Shown here in pieces: positions 18,862 to 57,593 of a stretch of DNA of 64,000 nt. Within the stretch, counting starts at the first letter, position 1. Every line of letters starts with the position of its first letter. Source of the DNA: Paraburkholderia sp. BL23I1N1 (GTDB lineage: Bacteria > Pseudomonadota > Gammaproteobacteria > Burkholderiales > Burkholderiaceae); assembly GCF_003610295.1 (NCBI RefSeq), contig NZ_RAPV01000002.1:310001-374000 (forward strand), written 5' to 3'. The position numbers and the translations under genes were made by a program. Under the pieces are notes generated by a model. It saw nothing but the letters and a program-made list of their open reading frames with translations. It was not told where the DNA came from and did not search any database.

Positions 18862-18904
18862 AAATAAAAAAAAGCGCTGTTGGATATCAATCCAACAGCG
18901 CTTT
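18862..18904 (-). terminator. intrinsic terminator of the second liv operon
   Basis: AAAGCGCTGTTGGA (18871-18884) pairs perfectly with TCCAACAGCGCTTT (18891-18904), loop 6 bases. On the minus strand it is followed by a run of T (plus A-run 18862-18873). It lies about 265 bases past the livM stop; the stretch 18905-19167 between them holds no gene I can support. Confidence 0.85.
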
Positions 18905-19167
18905 CGTCTGGGCACTGAGTGCCTCATTGTCTCCTCGTTCTCCACCTGCAAATTTCGCGATGCATCAGAACTGCATGAAGATTAAACGAGCACCTAACTG
19001 TTTACAACTAGCAATTACCCTAGTGGTGCACTGCGGCACAAATTTGGGGCACGTTCTGCGCCGCTTTGCACTCTGGGCCTCATCGCCGCGCAACGCACGA
19101 TCCGGCTTGATTTTAAGGACCGTCGAATTATATCGGATGCCGAAGCAATCTAAAATTTTGCGTCAAT

Positions 19168-24405: not shown

Positions 24406-26121
24406 TCACACAGCGGACATAGACGACGCGGTGCTCGACTGAGCTTGAACGCTGCCGGCCGCGTGTGCGCGACGGTCTTCCCGGATCATGTCGCTCGCGC
24501 GCTCGGCGATCATCAGCGTCGGCGAATTGGTGTTGCCCGATGTGATGGACGGCATGATTGATGCGTCGACCACACGCAGACCGTCAACCCCGATAACTCG
24601 TAGTCGATTGTCGACTACGGCGCCGGGGTCGTCGGTGGTGCCCATACGGCAGGTGCCGACCGGATGAAAGATGGTGGTGCCGACCGCGCCAGCGGCCTGC
24701 TGAAGTTCTTCTTCGGTCTGGTACTGGATCCCGGGCAGAATCTCTTGCGGCCGATAGGGCGCGAGCGCGGGCGCCGCGGCAATCCGGCGCGTGAGTCGCA
24801 ACGCGTTGGCCGCAACGTGCCGGTCGTAATCCGTGGACAGGTAGTTGGGCGCGATCAGCGGCGGCGCCGATGCATCGGCTGATCCAATATGAATACTGCC
24901 ACGCGAGGTCGGCCGTAACTGGCACACCGACGCGGTGAACGCATTGAAGCGATGCAGCGGTTCGCCAAAGCGGTCGAGCGAAAGCGGCTGCACGTGATAC
25001 TCGAGGTCGGGGCGCGTGAGCGAGGGATCGTCCGGATCGGATTTGGCGAACGCACCGAGTTGCGATGGCGACATGGACATGGGGCCGCTTTGAAAGAGCG
25101 CGTACTGCATGCCGATCATCAGCTTGCCCCACCAATGGGCGGAGGCGGTATTGAGCGTGCGCACGCCCTCGACTTTATAGGCCATTCGCAATTGCAGATG
25201 GTCCTGCAGATTTTCGCCGACGCCGCGCAGATCCTTCACGACCTCGATGCCGAGGTTTTGCAGACGCGCGCCCTGACCGATACCGGACAGTTCGAGCAAT
25301 TGCGGCGAGTTGACCGAGCCGGAACTGAGGATGACTTCGCAACGGGCTTTGGCGAGATAGTCGGTGTTGTCGCCGCGATATTCGACGCCGGTGCAGCGTC
25401 GTCCTTCGAATACCACACGCTGTGTGTGCGCACCGGTGATGACGGTGAGATTTGGGCGCCTGAGCGCTGGACGCAGAAACGCTTTCGACGCATTCCAGCG
25501 GATACCGCGTTTCTGATTGACGTCGAAGTAGCCGACGCCGGTATTGTCACCGCGATTGAAGTCGTCGGTGGCGGGTATGCCGGTTTGTTGCGCGGCGTGT
25601 GAAAACTCTTCGAGTATTTTCCATTTCAGGCGTTGCTTTTCGACTCGCCACGGGCCGCCCGCGCCATGTGATTCCGATGCGCCGGCGTGGTGGTCTTCGC
25701 TGCGTTTGAAGATGGGGAGGACGGCGTTCCAGGACCAGGAGGTGTCGTTGGTGACGCGGGCCCATTCGTCGTAGTCTTCGCGTTGGCCGCGCATGTAGAT
25801 CATGCCGTTGATGGATGAGCTGCCGCCTAATACTCGGCCTCGTGGGTATGAGAGGGAGCGGCCGTTCAGGCCGGGTTCTGATTGGGTTTTGTAGAGCCAG
25901 TCCGTGCGGGGATTGCCAATGCAGTAGAGGTAGCCTACCGGCACGTGGATCCAGTGGTAGTCGTCTTTGCCGCCGGCTTCTAACAGGAGGACCTGGATTT
26001 CTGGATCTTCCGATAGGCGGTTGGCTAGGACGCATCCTGCCGTGCCGGCGCCGACTATGATGTAGTCGAATTCGCCTTCCAGGCGGGGGGTTGCTTGTTG
26101 TGGTTTTTTGGTGTTGCTCAT
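24406..26121 (-). CDS. GMC-family FAD oxidoreductase (choline dehydrogenase-like)
   Basis: 571 aa from the ATG at 26121 (MSNTKKPQQATPRLEGEFDY), preceded by GGAGAC. It has the FAD-binding GAGTAG at residues 24-29, the GMC signature region GRVLGGSSSINGMIYMRGQ, and the C-terminal catalytic HPVGTCRMG. Such enzymes oxidise choline, alcohols or similar compounds to aldehydes; substrate unknown. The open frame continues upstream to 26319, but those 66 residues are translated repeat element. The 5' part of the gene has base composition distorted next to that repeat. Confidence 0.92.
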   Translation of the reverse strand: MSNTKKPQQATPRLEGEFDYIIVGAGTAGCVLANRLSEDPEIQVLLLEAGGKDDYHWIHVPVGYLYCIGNPRTDWLYKTQSEPGLNGRSLSYPRGRVLGGSSSINGMIYMRGQREDYDEWARVTNDTSWSWNAVLPIFKRSEDHHAGASESHGAGGPWRVEKQRLKWKILEEFSHAAQQTGIPATDDFNRGDNTGVGYFDVNQKRGIRWNASKAFLRPALRRPNLTVITGAHTQRVVFEGRRCTGVEYRGDNTDYLAKARCEVILSSGSVNSPQLLELSGIGQGARLQNLGIEVVKDLRGVGENLQDHLQLRMAYKVEGVRTLNTASAHWWGKLMIGMQYALFQSGPMSMSPSQLGAFAKSDPDDPSLTRPDLEYHVQPLSLDRFGEPLHRFNAFTASVCQLRPTSRGSIHIGSADASAPPLIAPNYLSTDYDRHVAANALRLTRRIAAAPALAPYRPQEILPGIQYQTEEELQQAAGAVGTTIFHPVGTCRMGTTDDPGAVVDNRLRVIGVDGLRVVDASIMPSITSGNTNSPTLMIAERASDMIREDRRAHAAGSVQAQSSTASSMSAV

Positions 26122-26206
26122 TGTTTCGTCTCCTAAGCTTTTTTTGCCTGCTCGGCGCTTGGGGGGGGTTTTGCCTGCTCGGCGGTTGCTTGTCTGGTTG
26201 CCTGGC

Positions 26207-26943
26207 GTGTTGGCCTTTCCTTGTTTTCTTATCGGTCTATTAGCGTTCCCCCTGTGCGGGGGGGCACCTACTTTTCTTTGCCTGCCGCAAAGAAAAGTAG
26301 GCAAAAGAAAGCGGCCCACACCGCTAGCTTATAAGCGGGTCCCCTGGCTTGGAGGAGGTAGTGGTGCATCTGGAATTTGTGCCCTCGCACATTCAGCCTT
26401 CGTGACAAGGCAGTCATACTTCCGGCGGCGCTGCGCGCGCCGAAGGGCACTTCATAACAACATTGGTTCACTTACGCCCACTCCAATCACATACGCTGGC
26501 TGTCGCCCGCTTCGCTCGGCACCCTCTCCTACTCACTTTTGCTGGCCGCCGATCACTGCACTCGGCAGCCCGTGCCACGCTTCCTCACTCTCGGCCACCT
26601 CAGTCAGCACAACTTGCTACCAAGCGATCACGCACCACGGCGAGTCGAAGCCGATGGCCCCCCACCGCACCTAAACAAAGCCCCCGGTTTCCCAGGCAGA
26701 CCCATCCGCGACGCACGCAGTGCGGAGTGGGAGCTGATGAGCCCTTAGTCACTCGCGCGGAATGCGCGAGGGCACGGATTCCAGATGCACCACTACCCCC
26801 TCCAAGCCAGGGGACCCGCTTATAAGCTAGCGGTGTGGGCCGCTTTCTTTTGCCTACTTTTCTTTGCGGCAGGCAAAGAAAAGCAGGTGCCCCCCCGCAC
26901 AGGGGAACGCTAATCGACCAATAACCAAACAAGGAAAGGCCAC
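26207..26943. repeat. inverted-repeat element, copy A
   Basis: About 737 bp with arms of roughly 175-180 bp that are near-perfect inverted copies (26207-26390 and 26769-26943). Each arm has an inner hairpin CCTACTTTTCTTTGC / GCAAAGAAAAGTAGG with a 5-base loop (26267-26301; 26853-26887, one mismatch). The shared edge sequence is GTGTTGGCCTTTCC. The centre (about 380 bp) has no credible gene or transposase. A second copy lies in gspK. Frames in it encode the repeated peptide VGAPPHRGNANRP, which I regard as a translation artefact. Confidence 0.9.
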
Positions 26944-26993
26944 CGCCATAAAACCACAGACAAACAACCGCCTCACAGGCAAAAACCAACAAA

Positions 26994-28532
26994 CTACTTA
27001 GCCACCGGCATGGTGAACTCAGCCCCCTTCCCAATACTATCCGGCCACCTCTGCATGATGCTCTTATACCGCGTATAAAACCGAACCCCTTCCTCACCAT
27101 AAGCATGGTGATCACCAAAAAGCGACCTCTTCCACCCACCAAAAGAATGCCACGCCATCGGCACAGGAATCGGCACATTAATCCCCACCATCCCAATCTC
27201 GATCCGCCGCGAGAAAGCCCGAGCCACCCCGCCATCGGAGGTAAACAACGACACCCCATTAGCAAACTCGTTAGCGTTAATCAGCTCGACAGCAGAAGCA
27301 AAATCCGGCACCCGCACAACACACAGCACGGGACCAAAAATCTCTTCACGGTAAATCTTCATATCGGTCGAGACATCATCGAACAACGTGCCGCCGAGAA
27401 AGAACCCCTTCTCATGCCCGGCCACCTGATGACCGCGACCATCGACAACCAGCTTCGCACCCGCCGCAACACCGGCATCGATATAACCCGTCACCTTCTC
27501 GCGATGCGCCGCCGTCACCAACGGCCCCATCTCGGCTTCCGATTCCATACCATTCAAAATCTTCAGACTCTTCACGCGCGGTGTCAGCCGTTCGATCAAT
27601 TCATCGGCAATATGCCCCACCGCGACCGCCACCGAAATCGCCATGCACCGCTCGCCCGCGGAACCATACGCCGCGCCGATCAACGCATCGACAGCCTGAT
27701 CGAGATCCGCGTCCGGCATCACCACGAGGTGATTCTTCGCACCGCCCAACGCCTGCACGCGCTTGCCGTGCTTCGTGCCTTCCGTATAGATGTATTCGGC
27801 AATCGGCGTCGAACCAACAAACGACAACGCACTCACCTCGGGATGCACGAGCAATGCATCCACCGCCACCTTGTCGCCATGCACGACATTGAACACGCCA
27901 TCCGGCAAGCCCGCCTCTTTCAGCAGTTCAGCCAGTCGGTTCGAGACGGACGGATCACGCTCCGACGGCTTCAGCACGAACGTGTTGCCGCATGCAATCG
28001 CCACCGGAAACATCCAGCACGGCACCATCATCGGAAAATTGAACGGCGTAATACCCGCGACCACGCCCAACGGCTGACGCAGATTCCAGTTGTCAATACC
28101 GCCGCCGATCTGGTCGGTAAAGTCCGTTTTCAGCAGATTCGGAATGCCGCACGCAAACTCGACAATCTCGATGCCGCGCATCACCTCACCCTTCGCATCC
28201 GAAAACACCTTGCCGTGCTCACGCGTGATCAATTCCGCCAGCTCGTCATGGTGACGGTCGAGCAATTCCTTGAACTTGAATAACACTCGCGCCCGCTTGA
28301 TCGGCGCGGTTTCGCTCCAGGCGGGAAACGCAGCGTTGGCGGCAGCGACCGCTGCGTCGACTTCAGCGACGCTCGCCAGCGGCACGCGTGCGCTCACACT
28401 GCCAAGCGCCGGGTTGAAGACGTCGCTAAAGCGGCCGCTCGTGCCTTCGATCGTCTTGCCGTTGATGAAATGGGTCAGCGCGCGTGCGCTCGTCTCGCTC
28501 CGGACGGTCTCGTCCTGATAGGTCTCGCTCAT
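26994..28532 (-). CDS. mmsA: methylmalonate-semialdehyde dehydrogenase (CoA-acylating)
   Basis: 512-aa aldehyde dehydrogenase that turns methylmalonate or malonate semialdehyde into propionyl- or acetyl-CoA, in valine, beta-alanine or inositol breakdown. The catalytic Cys is in [11 protein letters not shown] and the NAD-binding [13 protein letters not shown] region is present; the C-terminal [20 protein letters not shown] is diagnostic of MmsA/IolA. The 3' end is next to repeat copy A and is rich in A+C on the plus strand. It is divergent from a LysR gene that may regulate it. Confidence 0.94.
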
Positions 28533-54780: not shown

Positions 54781-55197
54781 ATGCGTCGTTGCAGGGACAT
54801 GGGGGCGCGCGTATCGCAGTGTGGTTCGCAGCGCGGTTTTACGATGATCGAGGTGCTGGTGGCGCTGGCGATCATCGCGATTGCGTTGGCGGCGTCGATG
54901 CGCGCGGTGGGGAGTCTCGCGAGCGGCGAAGCCGATCTGCATCGACGTCTGCTGGCGGGATGGAGTGCGGACAATACGCTGGCGCAATTGCATTTGACGC
55001 ATGGCTGGCCGAACGTCGGCTCGACGAGTTTTGACTGTTCGCAGGGCAATCTGGAGTTGATCTGTACCGAGCATGTGACGGCGACGCCGAATCCGGTGTT
55101 TCGTCGAGTGGAAGTGATGGTGACGACGCCTGGGCGTTCCGGCAATCTCGCCCAGATGGTCACGGTGGTCGCGAATGAAAACAACCGTTCGCTCTGA
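54781..55197 (+). CDS. gspI: minor pseudopilin GspI
   Basis: 138 aa from the ATG at 54781, one base after the gspH stop. Prepilin site QRG-FTMIEVLVALAIIAIA, then the GspI pattern ADNTLAQLHL. It forms part of the pseudopilus tip with GspJ and GspK. Confidence 0.94.
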   Translation: MRRCRDMGARVSQCGSQRGFTMIEVLVALAIIAIALAASMRAVGSLASGEADLHRRLLAGWSADNTLAQLHLTHGWPNVGSTSFDCSQGNLELICTEHVTATPNPVFRRVEVMVTTPGRSGNLAQMVTVVANENNRSL

Positions 55198-55852
55198 GCG
55201 CCGCGGCCGATCGGGCGCGCGTGGTTTCACGCTGATCGAGTTGCTGGTCGCGATTGCGATCATGGCGGTGATTGCCGTGTTGTCGTGGCGCGGGCTGGAC
55301 CAGATCATTCGTGGCCGCGAGACGATTACGAACGCGATGGAAGACGAGCGAGTTTTCGCGCAGCTATTCGACCAGATGCGGATCGACGCGCGGCAGGCCG
55401 CGTCGGACGACGAGTCCGGGCAGGCGGCCATATCGGTCAGCGGCAGCGTGTTGCAGATTGTGCGGGAGATGGTCTTGCCGGGGACGGCGCCGCGATTGCA
55501 GGTGGTGCGGTATCGCGTGTCCGAGGGGCGGGTGATTCGGTATGCGTCGCCGCCGCTGGGGAACGTGGGCGAGTTGCGGAGTGCGTTGCGCGGTGGCGAG
55601 GGAAATGGCTGGACGGCGGTGCCTTTGATGGGCGGTGTCGGTGCTATTTCAGCTCGTGTTTATGTGCCGAAGGTTGGCTGGACCACGCAGATGAAGGACG
55701 TGCAGAGTGCGATTACGGAGAACGATAATAATTTGAAGGTGCCCCAGTTGGGGAATGCGCCGCTGCCGCGGTCGGTGACTGGGCTGGAAGTGAGTATTGG
55801 GGCTAAGTCGTTGGCGCGGCCTGTTACGCGGGTTTTTCTCGTCGGAGAATGA
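55175..55852 (+). CDS. gspJ: minor pseudopilin GspJ
   Basis: 225 aa, overlapping gspI by 23 bases. Prepilin site ARG-FTLIELLVAIAIMAVI. The mature part is typical (WRGLDQIIRGRETITNAMED; RYRVSEG). The last 300 bases are strongly G+T-rich in codon third positions, unlike the start of the gene, next to the repeat element. Confidence 0.95.
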   Translation: MKTTVRSERRGRSGARGFTLIELLVAIAIMAVIAVLSWRGLDQIIRGRETITNAMEDERVFAQLFDQMRIDARQAASDDESGQAAISVSGSVLQIVREMVLPGTAPRLQVVRYRVSEGRVIRYASPPLGNVGELRSALRGGEGNGWTAVPLMGGVGAISARVYVPKVGWTTQMKDVQSAITENDNNLKVPQLGNAPLPRSVTGLEVSIGAKSLARPVTRVFLVGE

Positions 55853-55853
55853 G

Positions 55854-57593
55854 ATGAGGGTTTTTTTGTTGTCTCTGCGACGGTCTCGATTTTTGTTGTC
55901 TTCGCGACGCTCTGTGTCTGGGCGCCTGCGGCGGTGCTTTTCTTTCTGTTCTTTGTCTGCTCTGCGTTCTAGTCTGCGCTCTTATGGTGTTGGCCTTTCC
56001 TTGTTTTCTTGTCGGTCGATTGGCGTTCCCCCTGTGCGGGGGGGCACCTACTTTTCTTTGCCTGCCGCAAAGAAAAGTAGGCAAAGGAAAGCGGCTCAAA
56101 CCGCTAATGCTAAGCGGGTCCCCCGCACAGCCAACGGTAGTGGTGCATCTGGAATCCGTGCCCTCGCACATTCAACTTTCGTGACAAAGCAGTCATTCGT
56201 TCCGGCGGCGCTGCGCGCGCCGAGCGGCAATTCACGAAAAACGGTTGGCGCATCTAATAAGCAGACCCTTCCGGCGAGCGCGCAGCGCGAGGCGGGAAGT
56301 ATGACTGCCTTGTCACTTCGGGTTGAGGGTACGGGGGCACAGATTCCAGATGCACCACTACCCCCTCCAAGCCAGGGGACCCGCTTAAGAGTTAGCGGAT
56401 TGAGCTGCTTTCTTTTGCCTACTTTTCTTTGCGGCAGGCAAAGAAAAGTAGGTGCCCCCCCGCACAGGGGGAACGCTAATAGACCGACAAGAAAACAAGG
56501 AAAGACCAACACCGTAAGAGCACAGCCAAAAAACCAGCACGGCGCAGCAATAATCAGCGCCCTACTAGTAGTCGCGCTATCAGCGATATTAGTATCGGGC
56601 CTACTCTGGCGCCAGCAAGTCCAAATCCGAAGGATAGAAAACCAGCGCCTCCTATCCCAGGCGCAATGGGTCGCCCGCGGCGCACTAGACTGGACACGCC
56701 TGATCCTCCGCTCGGAGGGCGACACCTCAGCCGGCATCACCTACCTGGGTGGCCTATGGGGCGTCCCCATCGCCAAAACACGCCTATCGGATTTCCTGGG
56801 ACAAATCGGCGAAGTCCGGGCCGAACAAGGCCAGGCAACCTACCTCTCCGGCTCAATCGAAGACGCCCAGTCGAAATTCAACCTCCGCAATCTGGTCTCG
56901 AGCCCAGCGCCCGGCGTCATGCAACTGAACACGGAACAGATCGGCGCGTATCAGCGCCTGCTCGTATCCCTCGGCGTCAACAGCCAACTGGCGAAAGCCA
57001 CCGCCGTGCAGGTACGCACAAGTCTCGCGCAATCGGCGACCCGTTTTCAGACGATCACGTCCACCACGGGCTCGGCGGCGACCCCGATCACCGCGGGTGG
57101 TGGCGCCACCAGCGGCAGCTTCACTGATAAACCCGGTATCGAAGACGGCGACGACAATGCGGCGGTCGCGCCGCTGCAAATGACCAGCGTCGATTCATTG
57201 CTCGATATCCCCGGCTATACGCCGGAAATGGTCGCGCGCTTGCGGCCCTTCGTGACCGTGCTGCCGACCGTGTCGGCGGTCAACATGAATACGGCCTCCG
57301 CCGAAGTCGTCGCGGCGATCGTGCCGAGCATGAGCCTGTCCAGCGCGCAAGCCTTCGTCGCCCGCAGGCAGACCGTGTTTTTCCATAACGTCGCCGACGT
57401 CCAACTCGCTTTGAACGGCGCCGGCGTACAGTCGGGCTCCATCGACCAGAGTGAGATGGACGTCAATACGAACTACTTCCTGATCCACGGCCGTGTGCAG
57501 CACGAACGCGCGGTAGTGGACCGCACGACCCTCGTCTATCGCGACGCTTTGACTCACACAACGCGTATCGTGCGGATACAAGACCAACTATGA
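55854..57593 (+). CDS. gspK: type II secretion protein GspK with repeat element inserted near its start
   Basis: Minor pseudopilin at the pseudopilus tip. The GspK part starts around KNQHG-AAIISALLVVALSA (Gly at codon 230) and runs normally to the end (NMNTASAEVVAAIVPSMSLS). A well-placed ATG at 55854, one base after the gspJ stop and with GGAG upstream, is followed by about 220 codons of repeat and flank with no stop, still in frame. If the native start was MRAQPKNQHG, exactly 660 bp have been added (inference). Other starts are ATG 56301, or TTG codons near 56399. Normal leaders are 5-20 residues, so processing may be impaired. Confidence 0.8.
   Translation: MRVFLLSLRRSRFLLSSRRSVSGRLRRCFSFCSLSALRSSLRSYGVGLSLFSCRSIGVPPVRGGTYFSLPAAKKSRQRKAAQTANAKRVPRTANGSGASGIRALAHSTFVTKQSFVPAALRAPSGNSRKTVGASNKQTLPASAQREAGSMTALSLRVEGTGAQIPDAPLPPPSQGTRLRVSGLSCFLLPTFLCGRQRKVGAPPHRGNANRPTRKQGKTNTVRAQPKNQHGAAIISALLVVALSAILVSGLLWRQQVQIRRIENQRLLSQAQWVARGALDWTRLILRSEGDTSAGITYLGGLWGVPIAKTRLSDFLGQIGEVRAEQGQATYLSGSIEDAQSKFNLRNLVSSPAPGVMQLNTEQIGAYQRLLVSLGVNSQLAKATAVQVRTSLAQSATRFQTITSTTGSAATPITAGGGATSGSFTDKPGIEDGDDNAAVAPLQMTSVDSLLDIPGYTPEMVARLRPFVTVLPTVSAVNMNTASAEVVAAIVPSMSLSSAQAFVARRQTVFFHNVADVQLALNGAGVQSGSIDQSEMDVNTNYFLIHGRVQHERAVVDRTTLVYRDALTHTTRIVRIQDQL
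55987..56512. repeat. inverted-repeat element, copy B (within gspK)
   Basis: About 526 bp. Arms share the sequence of copy A: the edge GTGTTGGCCTTTCC, then GCGTTCCCCCTGTGCGGG, then the hairpin CCTACTTTTCTTTGC / GCAAAGAAAAGTAGG at 56047-56081 and again at 56418-56452 (loop 5 bases). The centre is shorter than in copy A, but TTCGTGACAA-GCAGTCAT and TTCCGGCGGCGCTGCGCGCG are shared. No transposase. Confidence 0.9.

What the first reader, a model, noticed from the sequence alone, without database searches (positions are those of the whole stretch)
25600..27300. Base composition flips across the repeat element: G+T-rich left, A+C-rich right (locus A)
On the plus strand 26101-26220 has A 3, C 27, G 39, T 51 by my count, while 26941-27060 has A 40, C 46, G 17, T 17. 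The bias fades into the GMC gene on the left and mmsA on the right, though both are coded on the same strand. Loss of C and A on the left and of G and T on the right is what repeated deamination of 3'-ended single strands would give if breaks kept forming at the element and were resected. Other strand-specific processes are possible.
Basis: partly seen in the sequence, partly recalled or inferred. Interest (0 to 1): 0.85.

Follow-up and report, generated by a model that had tools for sequence, protein, structure and literature searches.

The report
Repeats that skew neighbouring DNA
A hairpin repeat scattered through a soil bacterium's genome leaves a one-sided fingerprint on nearby genes, with A and C giving way to T and G on the strand that runs towards it, and the fingerprint remains after the repeat is lost.

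Summary
Base counts match exactly. Around 85 repeat arms of this genome, the strand running 5'->3' toward the arm is 76% G+T at 0-50 nt and falls to 50% by 2-3 kb (decay constant 602 nt). 212 arms from other records agree.

Two natural experiments tie it to the element. At GMC/mmsA (13 genomes with, 28 without) and gspJ/gspK (22 with, 19 without), fourfold sites near it are strongly skewed only where the element is, or apparently recently was, present. The skew ignores gene direction and, on C1, replication direction.

17 arms without a partner are skewed mainly on their outer side, so the single arm looks like the unit.

The spectrum is broader than deamination: C->G and G->T are biased too, with neighbour dependence. 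Best reading: repeated outward removal and error-prone resynthesis of one strand from each arm. Sign and place are shown; nick, enzyme and polymerase are inferred. Selection for G+T is the main rival. Library searches found no earlier description.

The parts
26211..26417 (+). Locus A left arm (outer end at 26211), 207 nt
   Evidence: the repeat finder; 85 related arm hits; profile
26737..26942 (-). Locus A right arm (outer end at 26942), inverted copy
26267..26301 (.). 15-bp hairpin of the left arm; stem covaries (92% Watson-Crick against 27-44% in slid controls, 271 distinct arms)
26853..26887 (.). Same hairpin in the right arm (one mismatch)
26418..26457 (+). Left-specific inner domain (gives the element an orientation)
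26458..26640 (.). Variable middle, not conserved between copies
26641..26736 (+). Right-specific inner domain
26196..26277 (-). Outward-facing match to Rfam RF02421 (Bp1_684 sRNA), 37.1 bits, below its cut-off of 44
26877..26976 (+). Outward-facing weak match to RF02421, 19.1 bits
25000..26210 (+). Left skewed flank (G+T-rich on + strand), mostly GMC gene; limits approximate
26943..28200 (-). Right skewed flank (A+C-rich on + strand, so G+T-rich on - strand), mostly mmsA; limits approximate
24406..26121 (-). GMC-family oxidoreductase (choline dehydrogenase-like, 603.4 bits, just under the cut-off 605)
26994..28532 (-). mmsA, methylmalonate-semialdehyde dehydrogenase (TIGR01722, over cut-off)
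55991..56196 (+). Locus B left arm
56301..56508 (-). Locus B right arm
55854..57593 (+). gspK reading frame, open from an ATG next to the gspJ stop through the whole element into GspK (NF037980 over the translation of 56544-57593); the start codon is my choice
55175..55852 (+). gspJ-like pseudopilin gene (prepilin motif PF07963/TIGR02532 over cut-off; TIGR01711 gspJ below cut-off)

Best explanation
A dispersed hairpin repeat of Burkholderiaceae (arm about 206 nt, usually an inverted pair, sometimes alone) imposes a directional substitution bias on the DNA at each arm's OUTER side. On the strand running 5'->3' toward the arm, A and C give way to T and G, decaying with a constant of about 600 nt. 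Shown: the association at dozens of loci and in many genomes; the skew comes with the element, outlasts its apparent loss, and follows neither gene direction nor (on C1) fork direction. Inferred: the arm is a directional entry point from which the opposite strand (whose 5' end faces outward) is repeatedly removed or re-made over some hundreds of nucleotides. The toward-strand then serves again and again as exposed single-stranded template, and lesions plus error-prone filling put A or C into the new strand, seen as T or G on the exposed one. A nick or hairpin cut followed by outward 5'->3' excision, or outward synthesis primed by the sRNA-like transcript predicted at the arm, would each do. 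Enzyme and start site are unknown.
For: Profile over 85 own arm hits and 212 elsewhere; controls. Two with/without comparisons, with apparent losses that keep the skew: G123 fully and G029 weakly at locus A, both with short arm-end remnants read by eye; G089 (no arm) and G136 (part of one arm) at locus B. Independence of gene direction and, for 54 arms on C1, fork direction. Partnerless arms mainly one-sided (16 of 17 above 0.5 at 100-600 nt outside). Arms cut on the inner side keep the skew (21 of 22 above 0.55), whereas 4 of 7 cut on the outer side are below 0.52. Changes shift to T or G, transversions included; G->T rises 2.9-fold while C->A stays at 1.0. Divergence and G/T differences rise toward the arm. 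Codon position 2 shifts at 0-300 nt (4.75:1). Neighbour dependence, alike for genes in both directions, suggests a process with a sequence signature.
Against: No measurement of single strands, nicks or transcripts in this genus. Keto->amino rates fall (0.76 of far, bootstrap 0.67-0.86) and total amino-keto flux is only 1.08 of far (0.95-1.21), against 1.41 expected if mutation is simply added; saturation and site heterogeneity could explain part, but so would biased fixation. The best-scoring RF02421 copies (apparently one solo copy in another genus, taken to be Burkholderia) show no outer skew beyond 200 nt, and instead G+T of 0.59-0.60 on the strand running toward the copy on its INNER side, some 250-550 nt away: this goes against 'outer side only'. 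Skew in two other genera is weaker. One of the 17 partnerless arms (L065) shows none. Arms cut on the outer side mostly abut inserted DNA, so that mapping is confounded with history.
Confidence: 0.5

Rival explanations
1. Selection (or biased conversion) for a G+T-rich 3' strand: the repeat is fragile, and G+T-rich flanks help RecA or Chi-like processing repair it, so tiny benefits fix G and T.
For: Sign fits: RecA binds TGG repeats preferentially, and TG-rich stretches near Chi are discussed (PMC3763553, abstract and passages). Keto->amino rates are lowered and flux is not raised as simple added mutation predicts. GCTGGTGG is second of 168 same-composition octamers near arms, 16 copies against a mean of 5.3.
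Against: TGG, GTG and GGT change little relative to composition near arms (1.14, 0.90, 1.04 times far), GGG does (1.77). G<->T exchange, neutral for G+T content, rises in both directions (G->T 2.9, T->G 1.6). Strong neighbour dependence. Codon position 2 also shifts at 0-300 nt. No motif dominates.
Confidence: 0.22
2. One reading: double-strand breaks at the element, resection, deamination of the 3' strands.
For: Sign, symmetry around pairs and decay length fit; C->T is the most biased change in the with/without contrast; long inverted repeats are known break sites (recalled).
Against: Transversions C->G and G->T are biased too; partnerless arms skewed mainly on one side; 20 other intergenic hairpins, shorter ones, show none; no dependence on fork direction, although breaks during replication need not show one.
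Confidence: 0.1
3. Transcription asymmetry: transcripts entering or leaving the arm expose one strand.
For: Outward RF02421-like sRNA end in the arm; an RNA of that family was detected by RT-PCR in another species (PMC3521395, passages). Skew larger for genes pointing at the arm.
Against: Outward transcription would expose the other strand and give the opposite sign for known non-template damage (recalled); genes in both directions are skewed; the copies best matching the RNA have no outer skew beyond 200 nt.
Confidence: 0.1
4. Replication: the arm is a polar fork barrier or local terminus.
For: The left strand resembles the leading strand of an incoming fork; gap size would fit lagging-strand fragments (recalled sizes).
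Against: 54 arms on C1 split by inferred fork direction differ by no more than 0.02 within 1 kb (p 0.21 or more), although the expected small replichore bias is seen beyond 1 kb (p 0.0003-0.0004) (fork direction from GC skew). C2 and C3 were not tested.
Confidence: 0.03
5. Insertion preference or codon usage: the element lands in already skewed DNA.
For: None beyond co-occurrence.
Against: Orthologous sites in lineages without sign of the element have ordinary fourfold composition.
Confidence: 0.02

Closest known systems
Rfam RF02421, Bp1_684 sRNA of Burkholderia
   Same: Outer part of the arm read outward aligns with it; one own-genome copy at an arm (C2:530536-530630, 51.3 bits) passes the cut-off
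   Different: Locus A arms score 37.1 and 19.1, below 44; the family is a single 113-nt RNA; the passages read mention no skew
REP/BIME and other interspersed palindromic repeats
   Same: Dispersed, hairpin-forming, often in inverted pairs
   Different: Arm about 206 nt; no link to a RAYT-like gene, present in all 22 same-genus genomes searched, with or without the element; long compositional footprint
G+T-rich islands around Chi in E. coli (seen only as cited work in PMC3763553)
   Same: G+T-rich strand oriented as for RecA loading
   Different: That case was attributed to codon usage (titles in the reference list); here orthologs without the element lack the skew
Strand-coordinated mutation in resected single-stranded DNA (yeast, cancer)
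   Same: Strand-specific damage next to an anchor
   Different: Oxidative mutation of yeast ssDNA is mainly C to T (PMC3799438, abstract); here several changes go to T or G and the footprint is evolutionary
Diversity-generating retroelements (recalled)
   Same: Hairpin at one end of a mutated tract, strand-specific change
   Different: C is lost as well as A; no template repeat was seen, and none was systematically sought

Membership tests
Rfam RF02421 Bp1_684 | Covariance-model score at or above 44 bits | tested here: not met
   Locus A arms 37.1 and 19.1 bits; other own-genome copies pass, e.g. C2:530536-530630 with 51.3
Rfam RF02421 Bp1_684 | Transcribed small RNA | not testable with these tools
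   RT-PCR reported in another species only (PMC3521395, passages)
REP/BIME with RAYT | Cognate RAYT transposase linked to repeat presence | tested here: not met
   PF01797 hit, mostly weak, in 22 of 22 same-genus genomes, including G009, G010, G011 in which no arm was found
REP/BIME with RAYT | Short (20-40 nt, recalled) palindromic unit | tested here: not met
   Conserved unit 206 positions; about 95 nt shared with two other genera
Miniature inverted-repeat transposon | Terminal inverted repeats | tested here: met
   27 inverted pairs in own genome with outer ends outward
Miniature inverted-repeat transposon | Target-site duplication and cognate transposase | not tested
   Not examined
Chi/RecA preferred-pairing island | Chi octamer or TGG/GTG triplets enriched beyond composition | tested here: inconclusive
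   Triplets hardly enriched; GCTGGTGG rank 2 of 168; the Chi of this genus is unknown to me
Diversity-generating retroelement | Substitution at adenines only (recalled) | tested here: not met
   C->T and C->G are the largest net changes

The most novel reading that the evidence does not exclude
A chromosomal repeat acts as a built-in, one-sided mutator: each arm repeatedly starts local removal and error-prone resynthesis of one strand over several hundred nucleotides, steering the evolution of neighbouring genes, down to amino acids, in a fixed direction at dozens of loci per genome and across a bacterial family. No such cis-acting directional mutator is known to me in bacteria.
Probability: 0.4. 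Interest if true: 0.95.

Novelty: new variant of a known kind. Interest (0 to 1): 0.86.

Why it matters
Local base composition is usually explained by replication, transcription or codon use. Here a small repeat is tied to kilobase-scale, strand-specific sequence change in ordinary host genes, with natural gain and loss experiments. If mutational, it is a directional, position-specific mutator that can be studied in non-pathogenic laboratory strains. If selective, it revives the idea of G+T-rich islands for recombination with a case that codon usage does not explain. Either way it warns that gene composition near such repeats can mislead tests for foreign DNA or selection.

Tried and rejected
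Gene direction, replication direction, insertion preference, a generic hairpin effect (20 hairpins), a single Chi-like word and concerted evolution of the two arms (17 pairs, partner rank 9-56 of 56) were tried and did not explain the pattern. A RAYT link was tried and not found. RNAalifold on the arm alignment gave few pairs, so stems were counted on columns that I named. The wobble test for which strand is the functional RNA was uninformative (198 G-U against 246 A-C).

Error and correction: mapped fourfold sites one base off for '+' arms; their fourfold results are invalid and not used. One search is the corrected run. An early conclusion of mine that divergence is not raised near arms (notebook) came and a few genome pairs and is withdrawn. 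One search did not orient minus-strand loci; one search replaces it.

Rows dropped: one search left out G123 and G029 (losses) and G014 (long branch) from the 28 'without' genomes. Searches fetched 40 of the 116 other genomes for each locus, chosen by me from listed rows, mostly with both halves on one contig. Ortholog pairs under 86% identity were dropped (96 to 85 pairs; same filter). One search used 29 of 30 loci. One search's rates assume stationarity. Genomes compared are related, so their p-values overstate independence.
Full report
WHAT WAS CHECKED. The window is C2:310001-374000 of a 9.12 Mb, four-contig genome.

THE ELEMENT. Locus A is 26211-26942: two inverted arms of about 206 nt around left- and right-specific inner domains and a variable middle. 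I worked with 85 arm hits of at least 50 nt in 50 fetched stretches. 27 inverted pairs were formed, outer ends outward. More copies exist: only part of the candidates were scored, and the best RF02421 match of this genome (C1:1333782-1333888) lies outside the stretches taken. The 15-bp hairpin keeps its pairing through compensating changes in 271 distinct arms (92% Watson-Crick, 27-44% when slid). The outer part, read outward, resembles Rfam RF02421. That family matches in 103 of 299 genomes of the bacterial family at E <= 0.001 (84 over the cut-off), in 6 of 25 genera.

THE FOOTPRINT. On the strand running 5'->3' toward an arm, G+T is 0.759 at 0-50 nt (80 of 85 above 0.5), 0.66 at 100-150, 0.60 at 400-600, 0.54 at 800-1000, 0.51 at 1.5-2 kb and 0.50 beyond 2 kb. 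An exponential fit from 100 to 3000 nt gives 602 +- 39 nt, and the mean at 100-600 nt lies 31 standard deviations above random placements. 81 of 85 arms exceed 0.5 there; 127 other intergenic sites and 20 other hairpins show nothing comparable. 212 arms in other named genomes repeat the profile (0.772 at 0-50 nt, 194 of 198 measurable). Two other genera show it more weakly (23 arms of what looks like one orthologous locus in genus g36, and 19 arms in genus g34). That last point does not fit an outer-side-only rule.

NOT GENES, NOT FORKS. At fourfold sites 150-300 nt from arms G+T is 0.81 for genes pointing at the arm (far baseline 0.55) and 0.70 for genes pointing away (baseline 0.47); at 0-150 nt it is 0.82 and 0.63 (the latter from 112 sites). 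On C1, 54 arms entered by the inferred fork from outside or inside do not differ within 1 kb, while the small expected replichore bias appears beyond.

NATURAL EXPERIMENTS. At GMC/mmsA, 13 genomes (the own one and 12 of 40 fetched) carry both arms (in G061 one is split by an insert) and 28 have none detected. Fourfold G+T over the nearest 450 nt is 0.76-0.88 left and 0.71-0.85 right in all 13; in 27 of the 28 others it is 0.42-0.62 and 0.40-0.61. The exception, G123 (0.78, 0.81), sits inside the element-bearing clade (its sister grouping has 78% support) and keeps a short remnant of an arm end (by eye), so it looks like a recent loss. G029, sister of element-bearing G114, is slightly raised (0.62, 0.60) and keeps both outer tips (by eye). 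At locus B (gspJ/gspK), 22 genomes with arms (21 with both, G136 with part of one) give 0.71-0.85 left and 0.60-0.78 right over 400 nt; 19 without give 0.49-0.77 and 0.38-0.75 (means 0.786 and 0.686 against 0.607 and 0.468; p 1.6e-7 and 7e-7). The highest of the 19, G089 (0.77, 0.75), belongs to a clade with element-bearing G107 and G132, again apparently a loss; without it the ranges are 0.49-0.66 and 0.38-0.55 and do not overlap those with arms. So the skew follows gain and outlasts loss.

ONE ARM SEEMS ENOUGH. In 17 loci a profile search found no partner in the fetched flanks. Their outer flank is as skewed as in pairs (0.64 at 100-200 nt; 15-17 of 17 above 0.5 in each 100-nt bin from 100 to 600; one arm, L065, has none overall). 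On the inner side, the same strand shows no opposite skew to 400 nt (0.487-0.522, with 0.586 at 50-100 nt, where conserved inner sequence lies) and a weak one (0.455-0.484) at 400-1500 nt, perhaps left by lost partners. Among arms in 170 loci, 21 of 22 that keep the outer end but lack the inner part have flanks above 0.55. Of 7 lacking the outer end, 4 are below 0.52 and 2 above 0.55, but several of these abut inserted mobile DNA, so history confounds the test.

WHAT KIND OF CHANGE. Contrasting 13 'with' and 25 'without' genomes at 0-300 nt gives, per genome pair, C->T 31.3 against 4.4, C->G 25.6 against 7.9, A->G 17.3 against 4.3, G->T 17.4 against 6.2 and A->T 3.0 against 1.7; 'without' against 'without' is near 1:1. 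At 300-600 nt G->T is hardly biased (5.8 against 4.6), the others still are or are rare. In 85 ortholog pairs over 51 arms, fourfold rates at 150-700 nt relative to 1.5-4 kb are C->T 2.4, C->G 1.9, A->T 2.5, A->G 1.3, G->T 2.9, T->G 1.6, C->A 1.0, T->C 0.6, G->A 0.6, G->C 0.8, T->A 0.7, A->C 0.9 (assuming stationarity). Fourfold divergence rises from 0.18-0.20 to 0.23-0.25 at 150-600 nt and 0.31 at 0-150 nt. Sites after G go to G and sites after C or T go to T, for genes in either direction. Codon position 2 shifts at 0-300 nt (4.75:1) but not at 300-600 nt (0.91).

READING. The changes are as if A or C were being put into the strand whose 5' end faces outward from the arm. Damage on an exposed template with error-prone filling explains changes to T and G of several kinds, the raised G<->T exchange and the neighbour effect. 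It does not directly explain the lower keto->amino rates (0.76, 0.67-0.86) and a total flux of 1.08 (0.95-1.21) where 1.41 is expected from added mutation; saturation may account for part. I therefore hold the mutational reading at about 0.5 and selection or biased fixation at 0.22. Deamination alone does not fit. What starts the process at the arm is not known.

LITERATURE. Of ten library searches, six aimed at the repeat or its skew and four at sRNA, RecA/Chi and ssDNA mutation; their listings show no description of this skew. Beyond listings I saw passages of PMC3521395, PMC3763553 and PMC2267715, a term search of PMC5719362 without hits and the abstract and outline of PMC3799438. The library lacks most subscription papers, so this does not prove novelty.

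Noticed in passing
window 55854-57593 and L295-L314: Locus B lies inside the leader of GspK. In all 21 genomes with both arms the frame into the prepilin motif (GAAIISALLVVAL or GVAIISALLVVAL) is open through the whole element (232-371 codons), while each other + frame has 6-17 stops. The repeat seems to be read as a long prepilin leader that the prepilin peptidase would remove (inference).
   Followed up: partly
L038 6157-7516, L058 4551-5999, L071 6075-7375, L049 6659-9170, L081 724-6040: Inserted DNA splits arms in the own genome: DDE transposases in L058 (with an IS4 domain) and L038, a group II intron maturase in L049 (the same protein is read in L081), and an insert of unknown kind in L071. 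Arms look like insertion targets.
   Followed up: partly
fourfold sites within 700 nt of arms: Neighbour rule: sites after G shift to G, sites after C or T shift to T, in both gene orientations. Unexplained.
   Followed up: partly
L245-L274 (30 best RF02421 loci): No outer skew beyond 200 nt, but G+T of 0.59-0.60 on the inner side some 250-550 nt away. Unexplained; may be an unrelated property of the one conserved neighbourhood.
   Followed up: no
G000 contig C1: GC skew of sampled stretches changes sign near 2.3, 3.7 and 5.6 Mb and once more between 6.56 and 1.05 Mb, as if C1 held two origins and two termini.
   Followed up: no
L276, L281-L283, L285: In several g36 genomes the two arms lie 2-3 kb apart; ORFs lie between them in the two that I listed, L283 and L276.
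   Followed up: no
window 26142-26188: Short direct repeat (TTTTGCCTGCTCGGCG..) just outside the left arm; related words such as TTTTTGCC and TTGCCTGC are frequent near arms genome-wide.
   Followed up: no
window 18868-18972: Rfam ncS01 Burkholderia sRNA on the - strand, 92 bits.
   Followed up: no
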